Shown here: positions 14,139 to 26,374 of the stretch, piece by piece
Layout: every line of letters starts with the position of its first letter
Position numbering within the stretch: the stretch's first letter is position 1
Source: Clostridium sp. BJN0013
GTDB taxonomy: Bacteria > Bacillota > Clostridia > Clostridiales > Clostridiaceae
Reading direction: 5' to 3'
Assembly (NCBI RefSeq): GCF_040939125.1
Contig: NZ_CP162495.1
Location: 62,001-126,000, forward strand
Length of the DNA: 64,000 nt
Translations under genes and position numbers: made by a program
The notes under the pieces: model-generated
What the model was told of the DNA's origin: nothing
The model's database searches: none
The model's input: only the letters and a program-made list of their open reading frames with translations

Positions 14139-14552
14139 ATGTTAGGAAAAGAATTAGCAAATATAATTACGAGTGGAATTTTAAGTATTTTAGGGGCGTT
14201 GGCTTCTTATGGTGTTACTGTAGGCATAGCTTATCTTAAAAAGAAAAAGGAATCCCTTGTTAAACAAATAGAAATAGACCAATACAACAAGGATTATAAA
14301 ATAGCACAAGACATATTCTATATAGCAGAGCAACAATTTAAATTCATCCCAGCAGCAGGGGAACAGAAGAGAAAAGAGTTCGACAAGCTTTTGGTAGAGA
14401 AAATTCCAGGAATATCTCAAGAAGAAATCGATCATTTTAGAGAGACTATTTGTGGAAAGATAAATTCAGAGGTCAAAGATAGTGGCATATTAGCACCTGC
14501 ATTTATAGAGGGAAAAGATCTTGCAGATGTAGTTACAACTACAACATCATAG
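14139..14552 (+). CDS. Phage holin, LLH family
   Basis: 137 aa. One N-terminal hydrophobic segment (about 9-32, ITSGILSILGALASYGVTVG) followed by a charged, helical cytoplasmic part (KKKKESLVKQ, IAQDIFYIAEQQFKF). This layout and the final SGILAP-type segment fit the LLH holin family. It starts 2 nt after the methyltransferase and ends before a strong terminator. With the holin at 12177 the phage has two holin-like proteins; one may be an antiholin or pinholin. Confidence 0.75.
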   Translation: MLGKELANIITSGILSILGALASYGVTVGIAYLKKKKESLVKQIEIDQYNKDYKIAQDIFYIAEQQFKFIPAAGEQKRKEFDKLLVEKIPGISQEEIDHFRETICGKINSEVKDSGILAPAFIEGKDLADVVTTTTS

Positions 14553-14563
14553 AAATAATTATT

Positions 14564-14591
14564 GCCCCGGTTTTCCGGGGCTTTATTTTTT
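14564..14591 (+). terminator. GC-rich terminator at the end of the lysis block
   Basis: GCCCCGG-TTT-TCCGGGGC followed by TTTATTTTTTT. It lies between two convergent transcripts, and its T-run overlaps the 3' end of the vsr gene on the other strand. Confidence 0.85.
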
Positions 14592-15011
14592 TGAAGATGA
14601 TTTATTTATAGTATCTTCAATTTTATTTATGCAATCCTGAAGGTTTTTTTTCACATCTTTATCCCAAAAGCGAAGGATCGTCCAACCTTTACTTGAAAGT
14701 TCTCTGTTTACATTTTCATCCCTTCGTATGTTCCTCTCAATTTTAGGTATCCAATAATCCCTGTTTGTACCAATTTTGTTTTTCTTCTCTTCCCAATTGT
14801 ATCCATGGAAAAATTCCGAATCTATAAATATTGCAATTTTTAGTTTCGGAAAAACTATGTCCGGTTTTCCAATAATTTTATCATAGTTTTTCCGATAATT
14901 CCTGTGACCGAGTTTCCATAATTCTTTCCGCATAATTATTTCTGATTTTGTGTCTTTACTTTTTATTGATTGCATTATTTTTCTGCGCTGTTGTTTGGTT
15001 ATTTTATCCAT
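14583..15011 (-). CDS. vsr: Very short patch repair endonuclease Vsr
   Basis: 142 aa. The N-terminus KQQRRKIMQSIKSKDTKSE and the core KPDIVFPKLKIAIFID with a catalytic Asp, then FFHGYNW and WTILRFWDKDV, match Vsr/XorII-type nicking enzymes. The zinc-binding Cys of the E. coli enzyme (HGCFWH) is replaced by SEFFHGY. It nicks next to T:G mismatches made by deamination of 5-methylcytosine. It is divergent from the adjacent C5-methyltransferase gene, which would create such mismatches in its own target. Confidence 0.88.
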   Translation of the reverse strand: MDKITKQQRRKIMQSIKSKDTKSEIIMRKELWKLGHRNYRKNYDKIIGKPDIVFPKLKIAIFIDSEFFHGYNWEEKKNKIGTNRDYWIPKIERNIRRDENVNRELSSKGWTILRFWDKDVKKNLQDCINKIEDTINKSSSKK

Positions 15012-15121
15012 ATTCTATTTCATCCGCCCTTCTCAAAACCATATATATATAATATAATACAATTAAATAGGAAATAATAAAAATCTATAATAATATATTT
15101 TGTATTGGAGGCTGGTATTTA

Positions 15122-16126
15122 ATGTCAGTTATAGATATAAATGAAATGCTTACCACAAAACATTTTTCAGCGGTATCATTATTTGCGGGTGCAGGTGGGC
15201 TGGATTTAGGTTTTGAAAACCGAGGGTTTAATATAATTTGGGCTAATGATATAGACGAAGATGCTTGTAAAACGCACCGTATTTGGTCAAACGCTAAAGT
15301 TGTTCAAGGCGATATTGGTAGAATTGACTTTGAGGATATCCCTAGGTCAGACATAGTGTTGGGAGGATTCCCATGCCAAGGTTTTTCATTAGCAGGTCCA
15401 AGGAAAATTGACGACAAAAGGAATAAGCTTTATAGGTATTTTGTTAAGCTAGTAGGGGCTAATCACCCATATGCTTTTGTTGCAGAGAACGTAAAGGGTA
15501 TTTTAACTTTAGGCGGTGGAAATGTGATAGAAGCAATAATAGAAGATTTTTCACAAAAAGGTTATACTGTATACCCAAAGCTTGTTAATGCAGCTGATTA
15601 TAACGTCCCACAAGACAGGTGGAGAGTAATTATGGTTGGATTTAGGAAAGACCTTAATGTTAGCAGTTTTGAAATGCCGAAACCTAATGAGTATAAGGTG
15701 AAACTTATAGATGCGCTGAAAAATATACATAACCCTAATTATAAAGATATTTGCCATGCTTCGTATTCATCTAGATTCATGAGCCGTAATAGAAAACGTG
15801 GCTGGAACCAAGTTAGTTATACTATACCAGCAATGGCTAAGCAAGTGCCATTGCACCCATCAAGCCCGGATATGGTTAAGATAGGGGAAGATAAATGGAG
15901 GTTTGGAAATAATGGTAAAACAAGGCGTTTAAGTTGGCAAGAATGTGCAGCTATACAAACGTTCCCACCTAACATGGAATTTGCAGGTAACCTTACAAGC
16001 AAATATAAACAAATTGGCAATGCTGTACCTGTTAAACTTGCTGAGGCAATAGCATCTAGTATTTTTGATGTATTGAATGCATGTGTACACCTTGAAGGAG
16101 CGCAAGAAGTATTGGGGGTAAAATAA
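15122..16126 (+). CDS. DNA (cytosine-5) methyltransferase, predicted GGCC specificity
   Basis: 334 aa, ATG with GGAGG upstream. Conserved motifs in order: FAGAGGLDLGF (motif I), GGFPCQGFS with catalytic C85 (IV), AENVKG (VI), NVPQDRWRVIMVG (VIII), then the target-recognition region and QIGNAVPVKLAEAIA (X). The stop overlaps the first base of the adjacent endonuclease gene (TAATG), so the two form one unit. Specificity is inferred from the HaeIII-family partner. Confidence 0.9.
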   Translation: MSVIDINEMLTTKHFSAVSLFAGAGGLDLGFENRGFNIIWANDIDEDACKTHRIWSNAKVVQGDIGRIDFEDIPRSDIVLGGFPCQGFSLAGPRKIDDKRNKLYRYFVKLVGANHPYAFVAENVKGILTLGGGNVIEAIIEDFSQKGYTVYPKLVNAADYNVPQDRWRVIMVGFRKDLNVSSFEMPKPNEYKVKLIDALKNIHNPNYKDICHASYSSRFMSRNRKRGWNQVSYTIPAMAKQVPLHPSSPDMVKIGEDKWRFGNNGKTRRLSWQECAAIQTFPPNMEFAGNLTSKYKQIGNAVPVKLAEAIASSIFDVLNACVHLEGAQEVLGVK

Positions 16127-17085
16127 TGGCAATCCAATCTAAAAACGGGAAAGGGTTTGAATATGCTTGTTTAAATGCTTTTGAAGAATATTTAAAAGGC
16201 AAAAATAATATTGTATTAATAGAAAATAATGAAGCTGTAGAAATAGCACGGAAAGATTATTATAAACTGTTACCTACACTGCGGGCTAAAATGGATAAGG
16301 CGGCACAGGCTGCAGCCCGCGTTATATCGCGATTGGAACCAAGGCTCCAGAACCCGATAAACGAGGACAATCTATACCTTACCCTTCAATCGGATAAAAA
16401 GGGAATAGAGGGAGATGTACGAGATCTTATTGCTATAAGGAAAAAGGATGATTGGGAAATAGGGATTAGCTGTAAGCATAACCATTCTGCAGTAAAGCAT
16501 TCAAGGCTTTCAAGAACTTTGGATTTTGGTAGTAAATGGCTAGGTATACCATGTTCAAGTAAATACTTTAATGAAATTTTACCAATATTTGATAGATTAA
16601 ATGAATTAAAAAGACAGGGAAAGGAATGGAAGGAAATATTAAATAAAGACGTGGGAATATATATGCCTGTATTAAATGCATTTATGAAAGAATTGAAAAG
16701 GCTTGAACAAGAGAACCCTAATATTGTGCCACAGAAATTTTTAAGCTATTTATTAGGCAATAGGGATTTTTATAAAGTTATAAGCATTGATAATAAAAAA
16801 TTAACTCAAATTGTAGTATTTTCTATGTATGGCACTTTAAACAAAAGCTCAGGGGAAATTAAACCGCAAGTAAAAATACCACAATTGATTTTACCAGCAA
16901 AATTTTATGATATTAGCTATAAAAATAACTCTAAAAATACAATAATAGCTACGTGTGATAATGGCTGGTCAGTATCAATGAGGATACATAATGCAAAATC
17001 ATTGGTAGAACCGAGCCTTAAATTTGACGTCAATTTGGTTGGAATACCACAAACACTATATACTCAGTCTGAACCATGGCAGTAA
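16126..17085 (+). CDS. HaeIII-family type II restriction endonuclease
   Basis: 319 aa. It starts KNGKGFEYACLNAFEEYL and has EGDVRDLIAIRKKDDWEIGI followed by SCKHNHSAVKHSRLS, the conserved acidic/Lys core of the HaeIII-like endonucleases (recognition GGCC). Length is normal for the family. Start codon overlaps the methyltransferase stop by one base. Together with Vsr this is a complete restriction-modification and repair island just outside the phage lysis block. Confidence 0.85.
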   Translation: MAIQSKNGKGFEYACLNAFEEYLKGKNNIVLIENNEAVEIARKDYYKLLPTLRAKMDKAAQAAARVISRLEPRLQNPINEDNLYLTLQSDKKGIEGDVRDLIAIRKKDDWEIGISCKHNHSAVKHSRLSRTLDFGSKWLGIPCSSKYFNEILPIFDRLNELKRQGKEWKEILNKDVGIYMPVLNAFMKELKRLEQENPNIVPQKFLSYLLGNRDFYKVISIDNKKLTQIVVFSMYGTLNKSSGEIKPQVKIPQLILPAKFYDISYKNNSKNTIIATCDNGWSVSMRIHNAKSLVEPSLKFDVNLVGIPQTLYTQSEPWQ

Positions 17086-17537: not shown

Positions 17538-18595
17538 ATGGATATGCGAAATGTCTCAGAATTAATAATTGAAAAAGCAATAATACATATTTTAGATAAT
17601 AGAAAAGAAAACCCAGTACTAATTGACTTTCCGTTAGAACTAACGGAGGATATATATTTACTTTTTGAAAGACATATTAAAAATTCTATCAATGATGAAA
17701 GCACAAGAATTGCAAAATTTGATGGTAACATTAATGTAGTAAAAGAATGCTGTAAAAATATAATTGAATCACCTGATAATAAATTTGTATCTGAATCAAA
17801 GGAAATAGCAAAATATTTATTTGATGCTATGAAAAACAGCAATATATCTCCCGCAAATTTTGCAGTATGTATTTATTCAGTTAATAATGAAAAAACATTG
17901 CATTGCTTAAAATGGATTTTAGTAAATTGATACAAACTAAAGTTGAAAATGTAGATGGTGGAAAAAAGAAAATAAAAGTGATTGTAAGTAGTGATGGAAT
18001 TCCGAATAATAAGCAAAAGCTTCAGAAATGTGTCTTTGTAAGACCAGATAATCCCCAAAATGATTATGATATAATATTATTGGATAAGCAAGCTGTAAAG
18101 TCAAAGAAAGATGATATGGTTGCAGATTTCTTTTCTAATACTTTTTTGCATTGCAAGCTAACAAAAACGGATCGAGATAACACAAGGATGTTTAAAGCGT
18201 ATACTCAAAAATTTATTGAAAAAAATTATAGTAGTAATATCGAAAAATCGGAAGATATTAGGTCGCATCTATTCTCAACATTAAAAAGTGCTGAGGAAAT
18301 TAATATTAAATCGTTTGCTGAAGAAGTTTTTGGCGATAACGAGGAAAAAAGAAATGAGTATATTTCTTATATATCAGAAAATTTAGGAGATCTAAAATTT
18401 AATATTGATAAACAATGGGTGGATACTCATGTTAGAAGAAAAAAAATAAAAACAGATACAAATGTTGAAATAAATATTGATTTTGATACCTCACAAGACA
18501 AGGAAAAATTTGACATAAAAAAGCATGAAGATGATGATAAAATGGATATAATAATAAAAAATATATCTAATTATTCTGAGGTTGTAACCAAGTAA
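17538..18595 (+). pseudogene. NA37/YejK-like nucleoid-associated protein gene with a 1-nt frameshift
   Basis: The ATG at 17538 has GGAGG 8 nt upstream (the TTG at 17523 is inside the RBS). The first frame covers about 130 aa and stops at 17930; the second continues from about 17894 to 18595. The junction restores the family hallmark ALLKMDF (as in NdpA/YejK LALLKLDY), followed by QKLQKCVFVRP, DIILLDKQ and VADFFSNTFLHCK. The shift lies in GAAAAAACATT: seven instead of six A's would give one frame of about 352 codons, the usual family size. E. coli YejK binds DNA; here a partner role with the following membrane protein is inferred from adjacency only. Confidence 0.75.
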
Positions 18596-18625
18596 ATTTT
18601 ATGAGTAATAATATGGAGTGATAAT

Positions 18626-20176
18626 ATGAATGGGGTGATAGCTGAATTAAATAAATTTTTAGCTTATATGGACTGGGGAAATGTAGATAACTTAAAATTT
18701 ACAGAAAATGCAAATTACTTTATTTACAGAAAACAATGCATTAGTTCTGAAATAAGAAATATCATAAATTATAATTTTGAAAATTTGTTTCTTATTTTTG
18801 ATTCATCATTAAAAATAATTTTTAGTCATATAAATGAACCAACCCCGTTTATTATATCAGATAAATTTAATAAACAGTATGCAAATGAATATATTGAAGA
18901 AATGTTTATTGCACATGAAACAATAAATGTTGAATTGAATATAAATAAAAATATTCTTAAAAATAAAATTCTTAACTCTGAATTTAAGGATAAATTTAAT
19001 ATAAACTTATTTTTTACTGATAAAATGTTTTTAGAATATGTAAACTTATTATCATATAGAAATTTAGAAAATGAGTTATATTCACAGACTCAAAAAACAA
19101 TAATTATTATTTTCAATAAAACAATATTATTTTATAATGATTTAGTTTTAATTATTGGTGGAAATAAAATTATAGAATTAGAAAATTATATAAAAAATAA
19201 ATTTAATTCTATTTTAGATATGGAATTATATAAAAAAATTATTCGAATGCGAAATGAGCAATGTAATTGGATAGATTGTCCTGAATGGTTATGCCCAGAA
19301 TATATGTATTTTAATTTTTCTGAGGATGATTTTATTTATAATTACGAGCTTAAACAATATTTTCTTTATATGACTGTAAATTTAGCTATACCATTTATTG
19401 CTAATTACACTAATAAAGAAAATAATAAGATATGTAGCTATATAAATGGGTATAAAAAGATAAAAATATATTATATGGATAATATAGTATATGATAACAA
19501 CATGGTATACTTTTTATTTAAACAATATAATTGGGCATATGAAGGTAATAACTCTGATAAATTGAGTATGTTAAGAAATTTAATGACTATATTTCTATGT
19601 GAAGAATGTGAAAGCTCATATTATCAATTAATATTAATTAATTCAGAAGATATATATAAATCTGTCAAAAATAATTTTGATATTTATCTTAAAAATAATG
19701 TTAAAGAATATTTTACAGAAACTCACAAAGTTAGAGAAATGGTTTCTAATAAATTAAAAGAAATTTCGGATGAAATTAGCGATCTAATTGGTAATATGAA
19801 TAAAAACTTTCTAGCAACAATTGGGGTAATATTAGGAGCAGCAATTGGGTATTTGACTAAAGGTAATATATATATATTAAAAATTTCAGCTATGGCTTAT
19901 GGAATATTTATTTTTTTGAATGCAAGTCTAACTATTCCATATTATAAGAAAAGAATTAATGATATTCAAAATGATTATACAGAACATCTTAAAATGTTTA
20001 GCAAAATAGTATTGCCTAAACATATGCCTGAATATGGAATAAGTGGTAATGTTAAAGTTTTTAATAAATATTGGTTTATATATATAGGTATCAATTTTAT
20101 AATTTTAGTATTAACATTTATTTTTGTAATAAAAACTACTTATGCAGTTGACTTTATAAAAAATATTTTACAATAA
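18626..20176 (+). CDS. Unknown protein with a large soluble domain and three C-terminal membrane segments
   Basis: 516 aa, ATG with GGAGTG upstream, starting 30 nt after the NA37-like gene. Residues about 1-380 are soluble, very rich in Asn/Ile/Lys/Tyr, with a WIDCPEWLCPEYMYF motif near residue 214 and CEECESS near 330. A coiled stretch (HKVREMVSNKLKEISDEISDL) precedes three membrane segments at about 396-416, 420-440 and 487-510. No enzyme motif is visible and the family is not recognised. The pairing of a DNA-binding protein with a membrane-anchored protein in a defence-rich island suggests a two-gene anti-phage unit, but that is inference. Confidence 0.55.
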   Translation: MNGVIAELNKFLAYMDWGNVDNLKFTENANYFIYRKQCISSEIRNIINYNFENLFLIFDSSLKIIFSHINEPTPFIISDKFNKQYANEYIEEMFIAHETINVELNINKNILKNKILNSEFKDKFNINLFFTDKMFLEYVNLLSYRNLENELYSQTQKTIIIIFNKTILFYNDLVLIIGGNKIIELENYIKNKFNSILDMELYKKIIRMRNEQCNWIDCPEWLCPEYMYFNFSEDDFIYNYELKQYFLYMTVNLAIPFIANYTNKENNKICSYINGYKKIKIYYMDNIVYDNNMVYFLFKQYNWAYEGNNSDKLSMLRNLMTIFLCEECESSYYQLILINSEDIYKSVKNNFDIYLKNNVKEYFTETHKVREMVSNKLKEISDEISDLIGNMNKNFLATIGVILGAAIGYLTKGNIYILKISAMAYGIFIFLNASLTIPYYKKRINDIQNDYTEHLKMFSKIVLPKHMPEYGISGNVKVFNKYWFIYIGINFIILVLTFIFVIKTTYAVDFIKNILQ

Positions 20177-20240
20177 AAATTTGAAATAATTTTAATGCAG
20201 AGATACAAACTGCAGGTTATAGACCAATAAAAAGATAAAT

Positions 20241-20268
20241 AAAAGCCCCAGACCAATCCAGGGCTTTT
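20241..20268 (+). terminator. Intrinsic terminator after the membrane protein gene
   Basis: AAAAGCCC and GGGCTTTT pair around a loop that contains a second short CCA/TGG-type match. It stands 65 nt after the stop of the 516-aa protein. Confidence 0.6.
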
Positions 20269-20400
20269 ACCAATCAAAACTATTTGGTGAAATAATTATT
20301 TTCATGGTATTAAGCATTATGTCCGAGTTACCATATTTTATACTTGGTTCCTAATTATATTGATATTTTCATGAACCCTGTTATAATAATAATTGGATGG

Positions 20401-20496
20401 AATTTTAGACTACCTATAAGGAATTGAAACTATGAGCCATAGAGGTATTAATTTCGCATTTTAGATAATTTTAGACTACCTATAAGGAAAATGTAA
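20401..20496 (+). CRISPR. Two-repeat CRISPR remnant (one spacer), type I-B-like repeat
   Basis: The block AATTTTAGACTACCTATAAGG recurs at 20401 and 20467, a period of 66 bp, as expected for a 30-bp repeat plus a 36-bp spacer. The first copy ends in ATTGAAAC (20423-20430), the classic 8-nt crRNA handle. The second copy is intact for 23 bp and then degenerates (AATGTAAAA), as terminal repeats do, which places the leader to the left. The spacer is 20431-20466. No cas gene occurs in the window, so any function would need Cas proteins from elsewhere. Confidence 0.75.
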
Positions 20497-21271
20497 AAAG
20501 CTGACCAAAGGCCAGCTAAAAAATTTGAAAGGAATAACTATAATAATAGTATGACCAAAATTTTTAGGTCGCATACAATAACATAGGAAACAATTTTAAT
20601 TAAAATATAAGGTATTCTTTAAATAAAAATTTTTATAATAAAAGCTCTGGCAAACACCAGGGCTTTTTAAGACAGTTCATTTATTATATATTATAATTAG
20701 GTAAAAACTCCAATTGAATTTTAACTGAAGTTTCTTTAATGTTTATTAAAATTAATTGATAACGTAGTAAAAACTGTAGTAATTTGATTAATATATTTCT
20801 ATAAGTTTAGATATATCAAAGTGTACCAGATTTTTATTATTCAAATCCCTCTTTCTCCGCCATAGTATTCATTAATTAGTATCTCTGCTTTCAAATATTA
20901 AATTATCTACATTTTCCAAGATGACCTTTATCCTTGATAAACCTATCTTGCATACAACCTCAAAAATTTCCTTCTCTATACTGTTGAAATTCAATTCCAA
21001 TTCATCTAAAATTATTATTCATACTAAAGCTCCTTTCTATATTTGTTTTCTCAAAATTAATTATAAAAAGTCTCTAGTATCAATAAAAGGCCTTTCAGCT
21101 AGGTAATTGCTGGCGGTCTTTCCTTTTTTTCTGCCTAATAATATTTTACTGTGACTTAATGATATTACGATAAATTTTTAAAATGCATTATAAAATATAA
21201 TAGGTTATTTCTGTCCAAAATGAAAAAGGAAAAATATTGATGTTGAAGAAAAATTTGCGCAATATAAATTT

Positions 21272-21586
21272 TTACTGTGACGAGATATATCCCAATGAGG
21301 AATGCATTCTTTTAGTATTATAATATAATTCAATATATTTAAAGATTTCTTTTTGAGCTTGTTCAGGTGACTCATATCTTAGCTTTTTTATTTCATACTG
21401 ACACGAATAGAGCGCGGTTCCATGACAGGGAATGAACTTCTCTCCGCATTCTTCATATTCACTTATCCAACGATATAAAGAATTATAATTAATAGATAAT
21501 GCTTTTGTTGCATCAGCAACAGACATCTCATCTTCTTATACTAACTTAACTGCTACAATTAATTGTTTATCATAACTTCTTCTCAT
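21272..21586 (-). pseudogene. IS3-family transposase remnant (fused ends of orfA and orfB)
   Basis: Reading from the ATG at 21586: MRRSYDKQLIVAVKLV, an in-frame stop, then EDEMSVADATKAL...LYRWISEYEE, which is the HTH part of orfA. The frame then jumps directly to AQKEIFKYIELYYNTKRMHS and LGYIS, the C-terminal end of an IS3/IS150 orfB integrase. The whole catalytic core between them is deleted. Non-functional. Confidence 0.8.
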
Positions 21587-21855
21587 AAAGCAAACCACCC
21601 TTTCACGTTTTTCTCTTATCTTAGTGTTTATTTTATTGTACCATTTTCATTTTTTAATCTGTCTATCTTAAGAGGAACATATCAAAAACTCATGTAGTAA
21701 TTTTTTATTTATATTAAATTGCATTGTAATTACAATGAATAGTTTACTGTTAACTACATCTAACTGTATATTATGTACAATTAATTGCATACTATATTCA
21801 TTTATGTATTGCATTAAAAATAGATTTTGCTATAATATATATGAGGTGAAAATAC

Positions 21856-22299
21856 ATGGATAATAATATATTAAATGTTGAACAAGCAGTAGAGTTCTTA
21901 GGTGTAAGTGAAAAAACACTAATAAAATTACTTAGGGAAGAACATATACCGGCCAGAAAGATAGGTAGAGAATGGAGGTTTAGTAAAGAGGCTTTAATAA
22001 GATGGTTGTCTTCTGGTGATTCATGCAATTATATTAATAAAGCTGAGATCTATCAGATTTCTGTAGATGAATCTGGTAAGTGTGAGCAACTATTAGACAA
22101 TATTTGCTCACACTTATCAAGTCTAAAAAGTACTAATAATATCAAACTTATTTTAAAAAAACTTGATAAGGATGTAAATATTCCTGAAGATGTGAGTTTA
22201 AGGATGAGTTATAAACAACAAAGAGATATTGAAAAGCTTGAATTTAAGATATACTGGCCTCAGAGAGAGGAGTGTAAAATTGATATAAATCAAAAATAG
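21856..22299 (+). CDS. Excisionase-type helix-turn-helix DNA-binding protein
   Basis: 147 aa, ATG with GAGGTG upstream. Residues about 5-55 are a MerR/excisionase-like HTH (LNVEQAVEFLGVSEKTL, REEHIPARKIGREWRFSKEALIRWL). The C-terminal 90 residues are charged with no recognised fold. It lies 80 nt upstream of an MFS transporter on the same strand and could regulate it. It may also be a leftover of a mobile element, given the IS remnants on both sides. Confidence 0.7.
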   Translation: MDNNILNVEQAVEFLGVSEKTLIKLLREEHIPARKIGREWRFSKEALIRWLSSGDSCNYINKAEIYQISVDESGKCEQLLDNICSHLSSLKSTNNIKLILKKLDKDVNIPEDVSLRMSYKQQRDIEKLEFKIYWPQREECKIDINQK

Positions 22300-22374
22300 A
22301 ATTTTAGAGGAAATTAGGAAAGCTTTTTGAAAATATAGCAACATAACAGTAAATAATCTGGGAACAAAGGTGGG

Positions 22375-23577
22375 ATGGGTGTGTATATTAATAATGAAAA
22401 AAATAAGAAAGTTTTAGGACTTGAACGCAACATCTTTTTTATTGGTATAACTAGTTTTTTAATGGATACAACAACGAAAATGATATACTCTATTATGCCC
22501 CTATTTTTAATGTCTATAGGTGCATCAAAAACAGAGGTATCTCTTATTGAAGGAATTGCAGAGAGTACAGCTTCAGTTCTTAAAGCTGTATCAGGCTGGT
22601 GGAGTGATAAAATTGGCAAAAATAAACCTTTTATGATTATTGGGTATGGCTTTACAGCTATTTTGTCTCCATTGTTTTCAATAGTAACTTCGCCTTTTCA
22701 GGTGCTAGTTATCAGATTTAGCGAAAGGGTTGGAAAGGGAATAAGGACTGCTCCAAGAGATAGTCTTGTAGCTGGCTCATCAAGTAATAGTGAAAAAGGA
22801 AAAAATTTTGGATTTCACAAAGCTATGGACAATAGTGGAGCGATAGTAGGACCTCTACTTACTTTTATAATTTTATCAGCATTTCCTAGTGATTATCGGA
22901 AAATATTTATATTTTCAGCTTTACCTGGGATACTTGGATTACTTACTATAATTTTCTTTGTAAAAGAGGCTAAAAAAAGTAAAGACGCTCTTCCTAAAAA
23001 GATTACCCTTAAGGACTTTTCATATAAATATTATATGTTTCTAGGCATTGCTTTTATATTTACCCTAGGTAACTCAACCGATGCCTTGTTGCTAGTAAAG
23101 GCTAATGACGTTGGTATAAAAGCTTTATTTATACCAATGGTATACTTGATATTTAACTCAGTATCAGTAATATTTGCTGTTCCTATGGGGATTCTCTCTG
23201 ATAAATTTGGTAGAGAAAGACTTATTATCTTTGGATATTTACTTTATTCTGTAATATACTTCAGTTTTGGAAGAACAACTAATAAAATCCTGGTAATTTT
23301 GCTATTTGCATTATATGGACTTTACAGTGCAGCAACAGATGGAGTACAAAAGGCACTAGTCTCAGACCTTATTGATGAAAATAAGAGGGGAACAGGACTG
23401 GGAATATATAATTCATTAATAGGGATAACCTTACTCCCTGCAAGTCTTATAGCTGGTATATTATATGACAAGGTTAATAATAGTGCCCCTTTTTATTTAG
23501 GTGCAGCAATGGCTTTAATTGCTACAATACTAATGTCCTTATTTTATAAGAGATTTGGCAAGATGAGTCAAATATAA
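22375..23577 (+). CDS. MFS transporter
   Basis: About 400 aa with 11-12 hydrophobic segments. The loop motif SGWWSDKIGKNKPFMIIGY at about 79-97 is the MFS signature between helices 2 and 3, and GILSDKFGRERLIIFGY at about 278-294 is its repeat. RVGKGIRTAPRDSLVA is typical of a subgroup of uncharacterised bacterial MFS exporters. AAGGTGG is only 2 nt from the ATG at 22375 but 8 nt from a GTG at 22381, so the GTG may be the true start. Substrate unknown; small-molecule efflux is plausible. Confidence 0.8.
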   Translation: MGVYINNEKNKKVLGLERNIFFIGITSFLMDTTTKMIYSIMPLFLMSIGASKTEVSLIEGIAESTASVLKAVSGWWSDKIGKNKPFMIIGYGFTAILSPLFSIVTSPFQVLVIRFSERVGKGIRTAPRDSLVAGSSSNSEKGKNFGFHKAMDNSGAIVGPLLTFIILSAFPSDYRKIFIFSALPGILGLLTIIFFVKEAKKSKDALPKKITLKDFSYKYYMFLGIAFIFTLGNSTDALLLVKANDVGIKALFIPMVYLIFNSVSVIFAVPMGILSDKFGRERLIIFGYLLYSVIYFSFGRTTNKILVILLFALYGLYSAATDGVQKALVSDLIDENKRGTGLGIYNSLIGITLLPASLIAGILYDKVNNSAPFYLGAAMALIATILMSLFYKRFGKMSQI

Positions 23578-23699
23578 TCTGCAATAAGTAATATGAAAAA
23601 TTAAAAAAATAAGTAATATAATAATTATTTTAAGAAATGATTTTAAAGTCTTTTATAGAATTATATATACTAATAATAATTTAGGGGAGATAGTTATAT

Positions 23700-24260
23700 A
23701 TGTTACAATTAAGCAAAAATGATAAGAATAAGGTGTTAGGTGCTATAAAAGAATGAAAAATTGATGCTGCAGATGTAAGCTTTCCTAATTTTATAGACGC
23801 AATAATATTAAAAATGAAGAATATGGGAATTATAGGTAAGTTAGGTAAAAGCTTTGAAGATAAGAGAAAGCAAAACAAGCATATGCCTTTAGATATACTT
23901 ATTACGCTAGCAATCACAGCAAAGATGAAACTTAAAACAAGCCTGACAGATGTAGCATTTGCAGTAACTGATTGTGAGTTATTATCAGAGCTTGGATGGA
24001 GTATGTGGGATACAGATAGAAACCTTGAAGAAGGCTTATTTGCAGAAGGTGTTATGAGAAATTTGATTCAAAAATATGATGCCAGGGAATTTATAGGTTC
24101 TTACAACCATTATGTTCAAGATGTAGTTATGCCATCCCTTGATATAGCTCCATCTATACATATCCTAGACTGTACTAAAATACGGGTAAACTTAGATAAT
24201 GTAAATTATGAGAATTCTGATGTATGCCAGCTATCCCTCAGAAATAAGAGCACTTCTTGA
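23700..24260 (+). pseudogene. DDE transposase remnant (IS4-superfamily type), truncated
   Basis: The ATG at 23700 opens MLQLSKNDKNKVLGAIKE and meets a TGA at 23754. The same frame then continues with FPNFIDAIILKMKNMG, KQNKHMPLDILITLAITAKMK, LLSELGW and HILDCTKIRVNLDN (the first DDE Asp region) until a stop at 24258-24260. The C-terminal two thirds are missing. The sequence resembles a common clostridial transposase; the exact IS family is not fixed here. Confidence 0.7.
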
Positions 24261-24335
24261 TCCAACCTTGGTTTTAGTATAGCGAGATTGGAGGCTTATA
24301 TCCAAATCACGAATTGCAGGTTATAATCATAATTG

Positions 24336-24400
24336 AAGTCATCCTTTAATGATATTTTTCTGTTTTTTAGTGAAAACATTATATCATAAAGTGATGACTT
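24336..24400 (+). repeat. Near-perfect inverted repeat with 20-nt arms
   Basis: Arms 24336-24355 (AAGTCATCCTTTAATGATAT) and 24381-24400 (ATATCATAAAGTGATGACTT) pair with a few mismatches around a 25-nt loop. It may terminate the gene on the minus strand that ends at 24475, or be an end of a lost IS element. Confidence 0.45.
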
Positions 24401-24474
24401 ATTTAATTTTACAATTACTGTTATTCCACAAGCTATTATTAATATAAATATTATACAATTTTATATTAATAGGT

Positions 24475-24963
24475 TTAGTGCATGTTCATTCCTGGCATAT
24501 TGCTTATTATTTCAGGATTGACCATACCAAAAATCATTGCAATATGTGCAACTATTAAAAATCCACTTATGAGTATAAAGTGAATTTTTAATTTATCGTT
24601 AGAGGATTTAGTTTTAAAGAGTATCCCTAGTTCTATTAATGTTATTGGTACTAGAAATATTACACCACTTAAATAAGATAGTACTGCAATTACATCTACC
24701 CATGTGTGCCATCCATTATTAGTTGTAAGAGGAATTACCACATTTACAAAAAGATATATAAATATTCCTGTAAAATAAATACCGTCAAATATTCCAATGA
24801 TTTTATTTAGAGTTTTTATACCTCCTTTTTCAATTTTATTATAAATTATAAAAAATTCTGTAATAGTAAGTAGTTCAGCACATACTACAGGTATAACCAT
24901 AAAAATAATTAAGTTCCAGGGTTGATTATCCATTAATAAAGACATATAATGTGTCATGTTCAT
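24475..24963 (-). CDS. Small integral membrane protein (DUF6803-like)
   Basis: 162 aa from an ATG at 24963 with GGAGGT 7 nt upstream; a longer GTG start would lie in the RBS. Four to five hydrophobic segments at about 16-40, 60-78, 92-115 and 130-148 are visible. The C-terminus ends MPGMNMH, a Met/His cluster that could bind copper or another soft metal. The outline fits small clostridial membrane proteins of unknown role. It is a lone gene among IS remnants. Confidence 0.65.
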   Translation of the reverse strand: MNMTHYMSLLMDNQPWNLIIFMVIPVVCAELLTITEFFIIYNKIEKGGIKTLNKIIGIFDGIYFTGIFIYLFVNVVIPLTTNNGWHTWVDVIAVLSYLSGVIFLVPITLIELGILFKTKSSNDKLKIHFILISGFLIVAHIAMIFGMVNPEIISNMPGMNMH

Positions 24964-25245
24964 TAGTATTACCTCCACAATAAATATTTTATTAATAATA
25001 CCAAGGAAATATGAAGATCGTATGAAGATTGTACAAAGCGATCAGTATAATTATAGTTGAATGTGAAAGAACAATAAATTACAAAATATAGTTAAAATCT
25101 GATTTATTAATTATAGTATAAGAGTACGATTACTATGGGATTTCCATCACGACAAAAGCATGAAGGTAAGTTTGTGCAACAAAAAATTACCAGTAACTAA
25201 AGTAGAAATTTTATAGTGAAATGACCTTGTAAACATAAACCTACT

Positions 25246-25689
25246 GAAGTTAAAGAATATTTTAGAGATTCCATGGCAGACAAGGGTAAAAATGAAAATA
25301 TGGAGTGTCATCATACTTTGGAGAAAGGCCATGGACGGATAGAAGAAAGGAACTATTATTACTCTGGTGATGTTAGCTGGATGCAGGATAAAAAAGATTG
25401 GATGAAATTAAATAGTATTGGAATGGTCATAAGAAAATGTGAAGAAAATGGAATTAAAACAGAAGAATCCAGCTGCTATATTTGTAGTGTAGCAAATGTA
25501 AAAGATTTTGCATGATCCGTTAGAAAACATTGGGGAATTGAAAGTATTCACTGGAGTCTTGATGTAATTTTTAGGGAAGATCATAATCGGACGCGAACAG
25601 GAAATGCGCCGCAGAATCTTGGTTTACTAAAAGGGCTTGCCCTCAATATGGTTAAAAAGGACGTAAAAAGGTATCCTAAAAAAGTTTGA
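25246..25689 (+). pseudogene. ISAs1-family transposase, C-terminal remnant
   Basis: An open stretch with EVKEYFRDSMADKG, EKGHGRIEERNYY, a TGA at 25513-25515, then RKHWGIESIHWSLDVIF, EDHNRTRTGNAPQNL and LLKGLALNM. These are the conserved C-terminal blocks of ISAs1/H-repeat transposases (YWGIE...HW.LDV.F.ED). The N-terminal two thirds are absent. Confidence 0.8.
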
Positions 25690-25959
25690 AATCCAGAAGA
25701 TTTCAGGCTCTGCCCAGCCGGGAATTATGTCGCAAAAACATGACATATCTCATAACATAAATGATCTAAAAGCATTTAAAAAAATTCTTGAAAAAGAGTT
25801 TTGGAAAGACATGGGTTTATGCTTTTTCCGTGGGGATTTCTACAGGGAAAACGCATGAATAAATAAACTGTAAAGAAGTCTGAAATCATGGGTTTAAGAC
25901 TTCTTTAATTAATTATTATAGTATGATAATTCATATAAATTATATGAGGTATGAATGCT

Positions 25960-26374
25960 ATGATAAAAAATAAAATGATAGATTATTTTGGAATTATAAC
26001 AGATCAGAGACAAAAAGCAAAAATTAAACACAATCTAACAGATATATTATTTATAGCTGTAGTTGGTACGTTGGCAAACTGCGATAGTTAGGTTGCCGTA
26101 GAAGATTTTGCAAATAACAGGAGCAGCTTTTTCAAAAAATATCTTACTTTGCCTATAGGATACCTTCTCATGGTACCATGCAAAGAGTTTTTGAATGGAT
26201 TGATCCAAAGGAATTCCAGAACTTTTAAAGCTTCTGGATATAAGTGGGTGTATTGTGACTACCGATGCAATGAGATGTCAGAAAAAAATAGTAAAAGCCA
26301 TTGTAGATAAAAAATCAGACTACGTATTAGCAATTAAAGGTAATCAAAAACTATTTTATGATGAAGTAAAATAG
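25960..26374 (+). pseudogene. ISAs1-family transposase, N-terminal remnant of a second copy
   Basis: The ATG at 25960 gives MIKNKMIDYFGIITDQRQ, KIKHNLTDILFIAVVGTLA and then a stop. Further pieces follow in other frames, ending with TTDAMRCQKKIVKAIVDKK and DYVLAIKGNQK (the DDE Asp block) and a TAG at 26372-26374. Several frameshifts and deletions are present. It lies downstream of the C-terminal remnant, so these are two separate decayed insertions rather than one split gene. Confidence 0.75.

What the first reader, a model, noticed from the sequence alone, without database searches (positions are those of the whole stretch)
17538..20176. Possible two-gene anti-phage unit: NA37-like DNA-binding protein plus membrane-anchored partner
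A NA37/YejK-family gene lies 30 nt upstream of a 516-aa protein with a large soluble part, a coiled coil and three C-terminal membrane segments. Both follow a complete restriction-modification set next to a prophage. The pairing of a nucleoid-associated protein with a membrane sensor is reminiscent of Kiwa (KwaA membrane, KwaB DNA-binding) in logic, though I see no sequence identity with those proteins. Neither the pair nor the 516-aa family is known to me as a named system.
Basis: partly seen in the sequence, partly recalled or inferred. Interest (0 to 1): 0.75.

Follow-up and report, generated by a model that had tools for sequence, protein, structure and literature searches.

The report
Membrane-anchored NA37 phage-defence candidate pair
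At the end of a bacterial prophage sits a two-gene unit, a DNA-binding (NA37-type) gene followed by an unknown membrane protein; the same pair recurs in distant bacteria, mostly on mobile elements or beside phage-defence genes, so it is a good untested candidate for a new anti-virus system, although the DNA-binding gene is broken in this copy.

Summary
The pair is real, but the NA37 gene is not intact: it lies in two overlapping frames (17538-17930, 17903-18595), each matching PF04245. Two metagenomic phage contigs carry the same split. The 516-aa partner (18626-20176) has no Pfam, NCBIfam, PADLOC, PHROG or confident PDB or fold match. Searches gave 13 distinct loci with a full-length or split partner gene, down to about 15% identity. 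In 12 of the 12 whose 5' side could be read, an NA37-like gene lies upstream on the same strand (two of the 12 are broken); ten intact pairs have gaps of 5-39 nt and correlated protein distances. The 30 best-scoring clostridial NA37 genes lack the partner (0 of 30). Ten of 13 loci (one weakly) lie on prophages, a Tn7-like element or an ICE-like region, or beside Cas3, caspase, TIR, SIR2, KAP or restriction genes. Neither protein is detectably related to KwaA or KwaB, while controls score strongly. Best reading: an unnamed two-gene anti-mobile-element unit that anchors an NA37 protein at the membrane, Kiwa-like in logic, not in descent. Function is untested; this copy may be dead. Side finding: the same prophage end carries a leader-bearing one-spacer CRISPR array matching the host's.

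The parts
17538..17930 (+). NA37 (PF04245) gene, first piece (N-terminal part)
   Evidence: PF04245 7.2e-18, profile 1-122 of 325; phrog_1974 4.6e-29
17903..18595 (+). NA37 (PF04245) gene, second piece, in another frame; coordinates are the mechanical ORF
   Evidence: PF04245 6.6e-23, profile 123-323; phrog_1974 8.1e-46
18626..20176 (+). 516-aa partner: soluble N-terminal part, long helix, hydrophobic C-terminal segments; family without a name
   Evidence: relatives; hydropathy; model; no hit
15122..16126 (+). C5 cytosine methylase of a HaeIII-type system (neighbour in the same prophage end)
   Evidence: PF00145 2.4e-77
16126..17085 (+). HaeIII-type restriction endonuclease (neighbour)
   Evidence: PF09556 1.1e-122; REase_II 1.1e-135
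14583..15011 (-). Vsr mismatch endonuclease (neighbour)
   Evidence: PF03852 2.3e-25
20401..20489 (+). mini-CRISPR: two repeats, one spacer of about 37 nt, leader upstream (same prophage end; not part of the pair)
20840..20875 (.). right end of the prophage (attachment site, tRNA-3'-end-like by eye); inferred from the break in identity with phage contigs L028 and L029
   Evidence: no whole tRNA found in 18000-26000

Best explanation
A two-gene anti-mobile-element (superinfection exclusion / phage defence) unit carried as accessory cargo by prophages and other mobile elements. Shown here: the two genes are a conserved, co-diverging pair; the second protein is probably membrane-anchored at its C terminus; the NA37 member differs from the ordinary NA37 genes, which lack the partner; the surroundings are mostly mobile or defensive. 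Inferred: the NA37-like protein binds DNA, is held at the membrane by the soluble part and long helix of its partner, and after phage entry this complex captures or silences the incoming DNA, or trips the membrane part. In this window the NA37 gene is split, so this copy is probably inactive or altered.
For: NA37-like gene upstream in 12 of 12 readable loci, same strand; gaps 5-39 nt in the 10 intact pairs compared. Distances of the two proteins over these 10 pairs: Mantel r 0.856, 0 of 20000 permutations as high; within clade 1 alone (6 pairs) r 0.71, 20 of 720. Other NA37 genes: of the 30 best-scoring clostridial loci, 0 of 30 have a large membrane-protein ORF starting within 250 nt downstream (28 read, L088 and L093), and 5 of 5 phage contigs L038-L042 lack the partner. 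G311 and G342 each hold a second NA37 gene on another contig but only one partner. Surroundings: prophage end (window; L026/L030; L044 after an amidase), phage genes with integrase (L012), viral contig with C5 methylases and HNH (L043), Tn7-like element with TniQ, TniB, TnsA/transposase and HsdM (L033), Cas3, caspase and TIR (L013), KAP NTPase, PLD and HNH (L016), SIR2 (L031).
Against: No activity data for any member. No background rate for defence or mobile neighbours was computed. Two loci (L011, L017), and the one readable side of L032, show no such neighbours, and L027's ICE-like label is weak. The window's NA37 gene is split; in G079 the membrane gene is in two ORFs and the NA37-like ORF is short; G696 keeps only a 131-aa C-terminal piece and G126 at most a 31-residue one. 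DNA binding of the paired NA37 branch rests on the family name. The fold model is weak (mean pLDDT 66, pTM 0.35) with no match at E <= 0.001 in PDB or BFVD. Much of the whole-set distance correlation may come from the split into two clades.
Confidence: 0.5

Rival explanations
1. Abortive-infection variant: the NA37-like protein is the sensor (of phage DNA topology or replication) and the membrane protein is the effector that damages the membrane when triggered.
For: Large soluble part joined by a long helix to C-terminal hydrophobic segments; nearly invariant residues cluster around 224 and 301-318, with single ones at 106, 108, 362 and 394, outside the hydrophobic segments, as a regulated effector could show; context as for the best explanation.
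Against: No pore-former or toxin family hit and no confident fold match; two pore-forming-toxin chains among the chance-level PDB rows (E 1.3 and above) mean nothing. Nothing shows which protein is the sensor.
Confidence: 0.25
2. Phage housekeeping: a lysogeny, segregation or replication aid that tethers the prophage or phage nucleoid to the membrane; no defence role.
For: Several members lie in prophages, and NA37 genes without the partner occur in phage genomes.
Against: The pair is also outside recognised phages: beside KAP/PLD/HNH (L016), SIR2 (L031), Cas3/caspase/TIR (L013), on a Tn7-like element (L033), and alone between housekeeping genes (L011); in the window it lies between lysis genes and attachment site, beside a restriction system.
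Confidence: 0.17
3. A divergent Kiwa: NA37-like protein = KwaB, membrane protein = KwaA.
For: Same logic (membrane protein plus DNA-binding protein, two genes).
Against: hhalign of the paired NA37 proteins against clostridial KwaB: probability 0.1; membrane protein against KwaA 0.1 and against KwaB 0.1 (the Kiwa alignments hold only 4 and 3 sequences). Controls with 3 or 4 sequences a side: the two clades of the pair's NA37 proteins 92.5 (E 4.8e-7), of its membrane proteins 99.2 (E 1.6e-19). No PADLOC Kiwa hit. Membrane protein about 490-516 aa against 186-214 for the three KwaA.
Confidence: 0.04
4. Chance neighbours or a decayed remnant without meaning.
For: The NA37 gene is split here.
Against: 12 of 12 readable loci keep the pair (see best explanation).
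Confidence: 0.04

Closest known systems
NA37 / YejK (NdpA) nucleoid-associated proteins, PF04245
   Same: The first gene belongs to this family: both window pieces and the intact relatives L026, L027 (scanned as its copy L007) and L021 pass the curated cut-off, and G311's copy (L008) does too.
   Different: Bound to a partner; NA37 genes are widespread (75 of 381 clostridial genomes) and the 30 best-scoring ones have no such neighbour. Clade 2 copies L009 and L023 do not reach the Pfam cut-off.
Kiwa (KwaA + KwaB, PF16162)
   Same: Two genes; membrane protein plus DNA-binding protein; can also sit beside an amidase-like gene (L050, by eye). Mechanism seen in passages of the review PMC12904381.
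   Different: No profile relation for either protein; partner more than twice as long, hydrophobic segments at its C terminus.
phrog_30064 and phrog_32650 (PHROGs v4, unknown function)
   Same: Clade 2 members of the pair fall in these two families: L043 2.8e-68 and 6.6e-93, L044 4.6e-24 and 3e-47.
   Different: Both families have no name or function there; the membrane proteins of the window and of L026 have no PHROG hit.
Prophage antiviral hotspots (PMC9122126, passages)
   Same: Small variable loci of prophages holding defence genes.
   Different: That paper describes other phages; its main text has no occurrence of nucleoid, NA37 or YejK.

Membership tests
NA37 (PF04245) | Profile match over the curated cut-off | tested here: met
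   both window pieces; for relatives. Not met by L002, L003, L004, L009 (E 0.0051) and L023; these are joined by alignment and by hhalign of the two clades. L043 and L044 were not scanned against Pfam; they match phrog_30064.
NA37 (PF04245) | One intact gene of about 340 aa | tested here: not met
   Window: two frames. Ten intact relatives: one frame.
NA37 (PF04245) | Binds DNA / nucleoid-associated | not testable with these tools
   Family knowledge, recalled.
Kiwa | KwaB (PF16162) homologue | tested here: not met
   no PF16162 hit (probability 0.1)
Kiwa | KwaA homologue, small membrane protein | tested here: not met
   (probability 0.1); lengths. The three KwaA were taken by position and hydrophobicity, not by a family hit.
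Kiwa | Membrane complex that blocks phage DNA | not testable with these tools
   Needs experiment.
Named systems in PADLOC-DB 2.0.0 (2023) | Any model hit by either protein | tested here: not met
   none for the pair; one chance-level Cas5f hit (E 0.028) for L021's NA37-like protein
Conserved two-gene unit | Partner found with NA37-like gene, not without | tested here: met
   12 of 12 readable loci; the 13th (L022/L032) ends at the contig edge
Anti-phage system | Protects cells from phage | not testable with these tools
   No assay.

The most novel reading that the evidence does not exclude
An unnamed, rare but widely scattered family of two-gene phage defence systems in Clostridia and their phylum in which a relative of a chromosome-organising NA37 protein has been recruited to the membrane by a dedicated anchor: a second, independently evolved solution of the Kiwa kind, with two deep clades, found at prophage ends where it can sit with restriction enzymes and, here, a mini-CRISPR array.
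Probability: 0.35. Interest if true: 0.75.

Novelty: new variant of a known kind. Interest (0 to 1): 0.55.

Why it matters
If true, nucleoid proteins of the NA37 family, whose cellular role is ill-defined (recalled), have been taken into immunity, and membrane tethering of a DNA-binding protein evolved twice. It also gives a testable intact pair from Tissierella praeacuta.

Tried and rejected
Kiwa homology: rejected at sequence level (controls 88-89). Named PADLOC systems: none. Relatives in the annotated phage and plasmid collections: none for the window protein in either, none in plasmids for L043's, none in phages for L044's. Solved structures by sequence: no hit for the NA37 set at E <= 10, only three BiP chains at E 1.6-1.7 for the membrane protein. 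Fold search: 0 matches at E <= 0.001 in PDB and BFVD with a weak model; a model of the NA37 partner was asked for twice and not obtained. Viral-contig scans with L009's and L008's membrane proteins and the clade 2 NA37 alignment found no relative.

Rows dropped before counts: profile hits judged false from their ORFs by eye (L010, L024, L061, L062), a 131-aa C-terminal piece (L025, G696) and a possible 31-residue piece (L005, G126). L028 and L029 are copies of the window's unit and L030/L037 of L026's; L006 and L007 are the same genes as in L026 and L027; none is counted twice. In one search my script read L093 on the wrong strand and found no gene in L088; both were read again. Programmed frameshifting as the reason for the split was considered; it is not excluded, but the ten intact relatives use one frame and no test was run.

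Print: searches listed no paper that I could recognise as describing an NA37-plus-membrane defence pair; I saw listings only, except passages of PMC12904381, PMC8649781 and PMC9122126, a term search without hits in PMC11514479, and abstract and outline of PMC6858448. The Kiwa primary paper is not held.

Full report
1. What is there. The 516-aa ORF is at 18626-20176 and an NA37 gene lies 30 nt upstream. The NA37 gene is not intact. Its N-terminal part is ORF 17538-17930 and its C-terminal part is ORF 17903-18595 in another frame; each passes the PF04245 cut-off on its own. No other NA37 match is in this 4.1-Mb genome. Upstream are a HaeIII-type methylase and endonuclease, a Vsr gene, an N4/N6 methylase, an amidase and a large GDSL-domain protein with weak tail-fibre similarity. 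The 516-aa protein has no Pfam, PADLOC, NCBIfam or PHROG hit.

2. Where it sits. Window 10626-20875 matches viral contig L028 at 99.8%, and 12112-20875 matches L029 with three differences, at 20866, 20867 and 20870. In both contigs the next genes are on the other strand, beginning with a 389-aa gene that in L028 is a phage integrase (PF00589 5.3e-32). So the pair is the last protein-coding unit found before the prophage's end near 20866-20875, after the lysis genes. The sequence there looks like the 3' end of a tRNA gene (by eye; no whole tRNA was found in 18000-26000). Both phage contigs carry the same split NA37 gene.

3. Relatives. A single-protein search of 206 genomes of the family matched 5, one of them over 31 residues only. 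Profiles matched 6 of 391 class genomes (one judged false), 7 of 391 with a wider profile (two judged false) and 6 of 398 phylum genomes (one judged false and one a 131-aa piece). These samples overlap and include the window's genome. The unit is therefore rare (about 1%) and patchy. Named loci are Tissierella praeacuta DSM 18095 (L026) and a Eubacteriales MAG (L027). Viral contigs added L043 and L044. In all, 13 distinct loci: window, L002, L003, L004, L008, L009, L021, L022, L023, L026, L027, L043, L044. In L004 the membrane gene is in two ORFs (the 139-aa piece matches L044's protein, E 2e-8) and the NA37-like ORF is short (236 aa).

4. The pair is conserved. L022's contig ends just 5' of its gene. 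In the other 12 of 12 an NA37-like gene lies upstream of the membrane gene on the same strand. Five of these pass the Pfam cut-off (window pieces, L026, L027, L021, L008). L002, L003 and L004 have no NA37 hit and are placed by alignment. L009 is below the cut-off (E 0.0051) and L023 has no NA37 hit, but the two NA37 clades match by hhalign (probability 92.5, E 4.8e-7), as do the membrane-protein clades (99.2, E 1.6e-19). L043 and L044 match phrog_30064. Gaps are 5-39 nt in the 10 intact pairs. Distances of the two proteins over these 10 correlate (r 0.856, 0 of 20000 permutations; within clade 1 r 0.71, 20 of 720), so the genes appear to travel together.

5. Ordinary NA37 genes differ. 75 of 381 class genomes have a PF04245 match. 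Of the 30 best-scoring loci returned, 0 of 30 have a large membrane-protein ORF starting within 250 nt downstream (28, two re-read); these 30 are the most canonical members, so the sample is biased. Four paired genomes are among the 75 (G000, G311, G342, G456). G311, G342 and G487 each hold an NA37 gene on a contig other than that of their pair and only one partner match. Five phage contigs with NA37 (L038-L042; L038 and L039 carry the same protein) have no partner.

6. Surroundings, 13 loci. Mobile or defence context in 10: window, L026 (lysis-type genes upstream, by eye), L044 (amidase PF01520), L012 (integrase PF00589; other phage genes by eye), L043 (viral contig, two C5 methylases of which one was checked, HNH), L033 (TniQ, TniB, TnsA-like plus integrase core, HsdM with specificity domain), L013 (Cas3, caspase, TIR), L016 (KAP NTPase, PLD, HNH), L031 (SIR2) and, weakly, L027 (ICE-like: a TrwB match below its cut-off and a reverse transcriptase by eye). 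None seen in L011 (mutS/mutL and ilvE region, by eye), L017 and the one readable side of L032. Pfam labels are; other labels are by eye. No background rate was computed.

7. Protein anatomy. The partner has hydrophobic segments near its C terminus: at least two in 12 of 12 and three in 6 of 12 members at the threshold used, the window protein among the six. A further hydrophobic stretch at 159-177 of the window protein is against a simple topology; the model gives a strand at 157-162 and low confidence from 165. The model (mean pLDDT 66, pTM 0.35, five sequences) shows a mixed alpha/beta soluble part and long helices 340-410, 415-459 and 471-502, consistent with a stalk entering the membrane. 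No fold match at E <= 0.001. Over 12 sequences the invariant or nearly invariant residues are M1, I106, K108, P224, Y301, W303, Y305, D311, R317, N318, Y362 and N394; I recognise no catalytic motif.

8. Mechanism. Shown: pairing, co-divergence, probable membrane anchoring, accessory context. Inferred: the NA37-like protein binds DNA (family knowledge, recalled), the partner holds it at the membrane, and the complex blocks incoming DNA or triggers the membrane part. A review says that KwaA senses infection at the membrane and KwaB binds injecting DNA without cutting it (PMC12904381, passages); that is the nearest working analogy. By descent it does not look like Kiwa: three profile comparisons gave probability 0.1, using four KwaB and three KwaA proteins from clostridial genomes (KwaA taken by position and hydrophobicity).

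9. State of this copy. With its NA37 gene split in the prophage and in two phage contigs, this unit is probably inactive or works differently. Broken or partial copies elsewhere (G079, G696, perhaps G126) would fit repeated gain and loss.

10. Verdict. A real, conserved, unnamed pair and a good defence candidate, but with no functional evidence. Five paper searches showed no paper on it in their listings; the library is open-access only, so this does not prove absence.

11. Side finding. At 20401-20489, between the pair and the attachment site, are two copies of the host's CRISPR repeat (the second matching over 23 nt only) with one spacer of about 37 nt. Of the nucleotides before the first repeat, 44 match the end of the leader region of the host's large array at 97.7% (E 1.9e-18). 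The phage contigs carry the spacer too. No target was found: no phage record covers 80% of the 41-nt query, the exact 25-nt core occurs in viral contigs only in these two phages, and in 13 genus genomes only here at up to 3 mismatches. Leader-bearing virus mini-arrays are known from archaeal viruses (PMC6858448, abstract and outline).

Noticed in passing
window 20401-20489 (also L028, L029): Prophage-borne mini-CRISPR: two repeats matching the host's arrays, one spacer of about 37 nt, and 44 nt of upstream sequence 97.7% identical to that before the host's big array. Target of the spacer unknown.
   Followed up: partly
L065 3955-18620 (G000:C1 about 1.964-1.979 Mb): By eye: cas-type genes (Cas4/Cas1-like, Cas6-like, Cas10 and RAMP-like) near arrays with a variant repeat, so the host may have machinery that could use the prophage mini-array.
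   Followed up: partly
L019 (G126) 15110-15149 and 15471-15566: Two short matches to window 20629-20667 (40 nt, 90%) and 14497-14592 (96 nt, 94.8%, opposite strand), some 5 kb from a possible 31-residue piece of the membrane protein. Meaning unclear.
   Followed up: no
L028 against L029: Two phage contigs share an 11095-bp block (99.96%) holding the pair, restriction genes and integrase, but differ on both sides of it.
   Followed up: no
L013 433-19832: Dense defence neighbourhood: Cas3, caspase-domain protein, a broken copy of the pair, TIR protein.
   Followed up: partly
L048 911-2382, L050 1147-2667, L049 482-2058: Clostridial Kiwa-like loci: KwaB (PF16162) comes first in L048 and L050 and second in L049; L050's lies next to an amidase-like gene (labels other than KwaB by eye).
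   Followed up: no
L017 7909-8982: 357-aa gene of unknown family directly downstream of a clade 2 pair; no Pfam hit.
   Followed up: no
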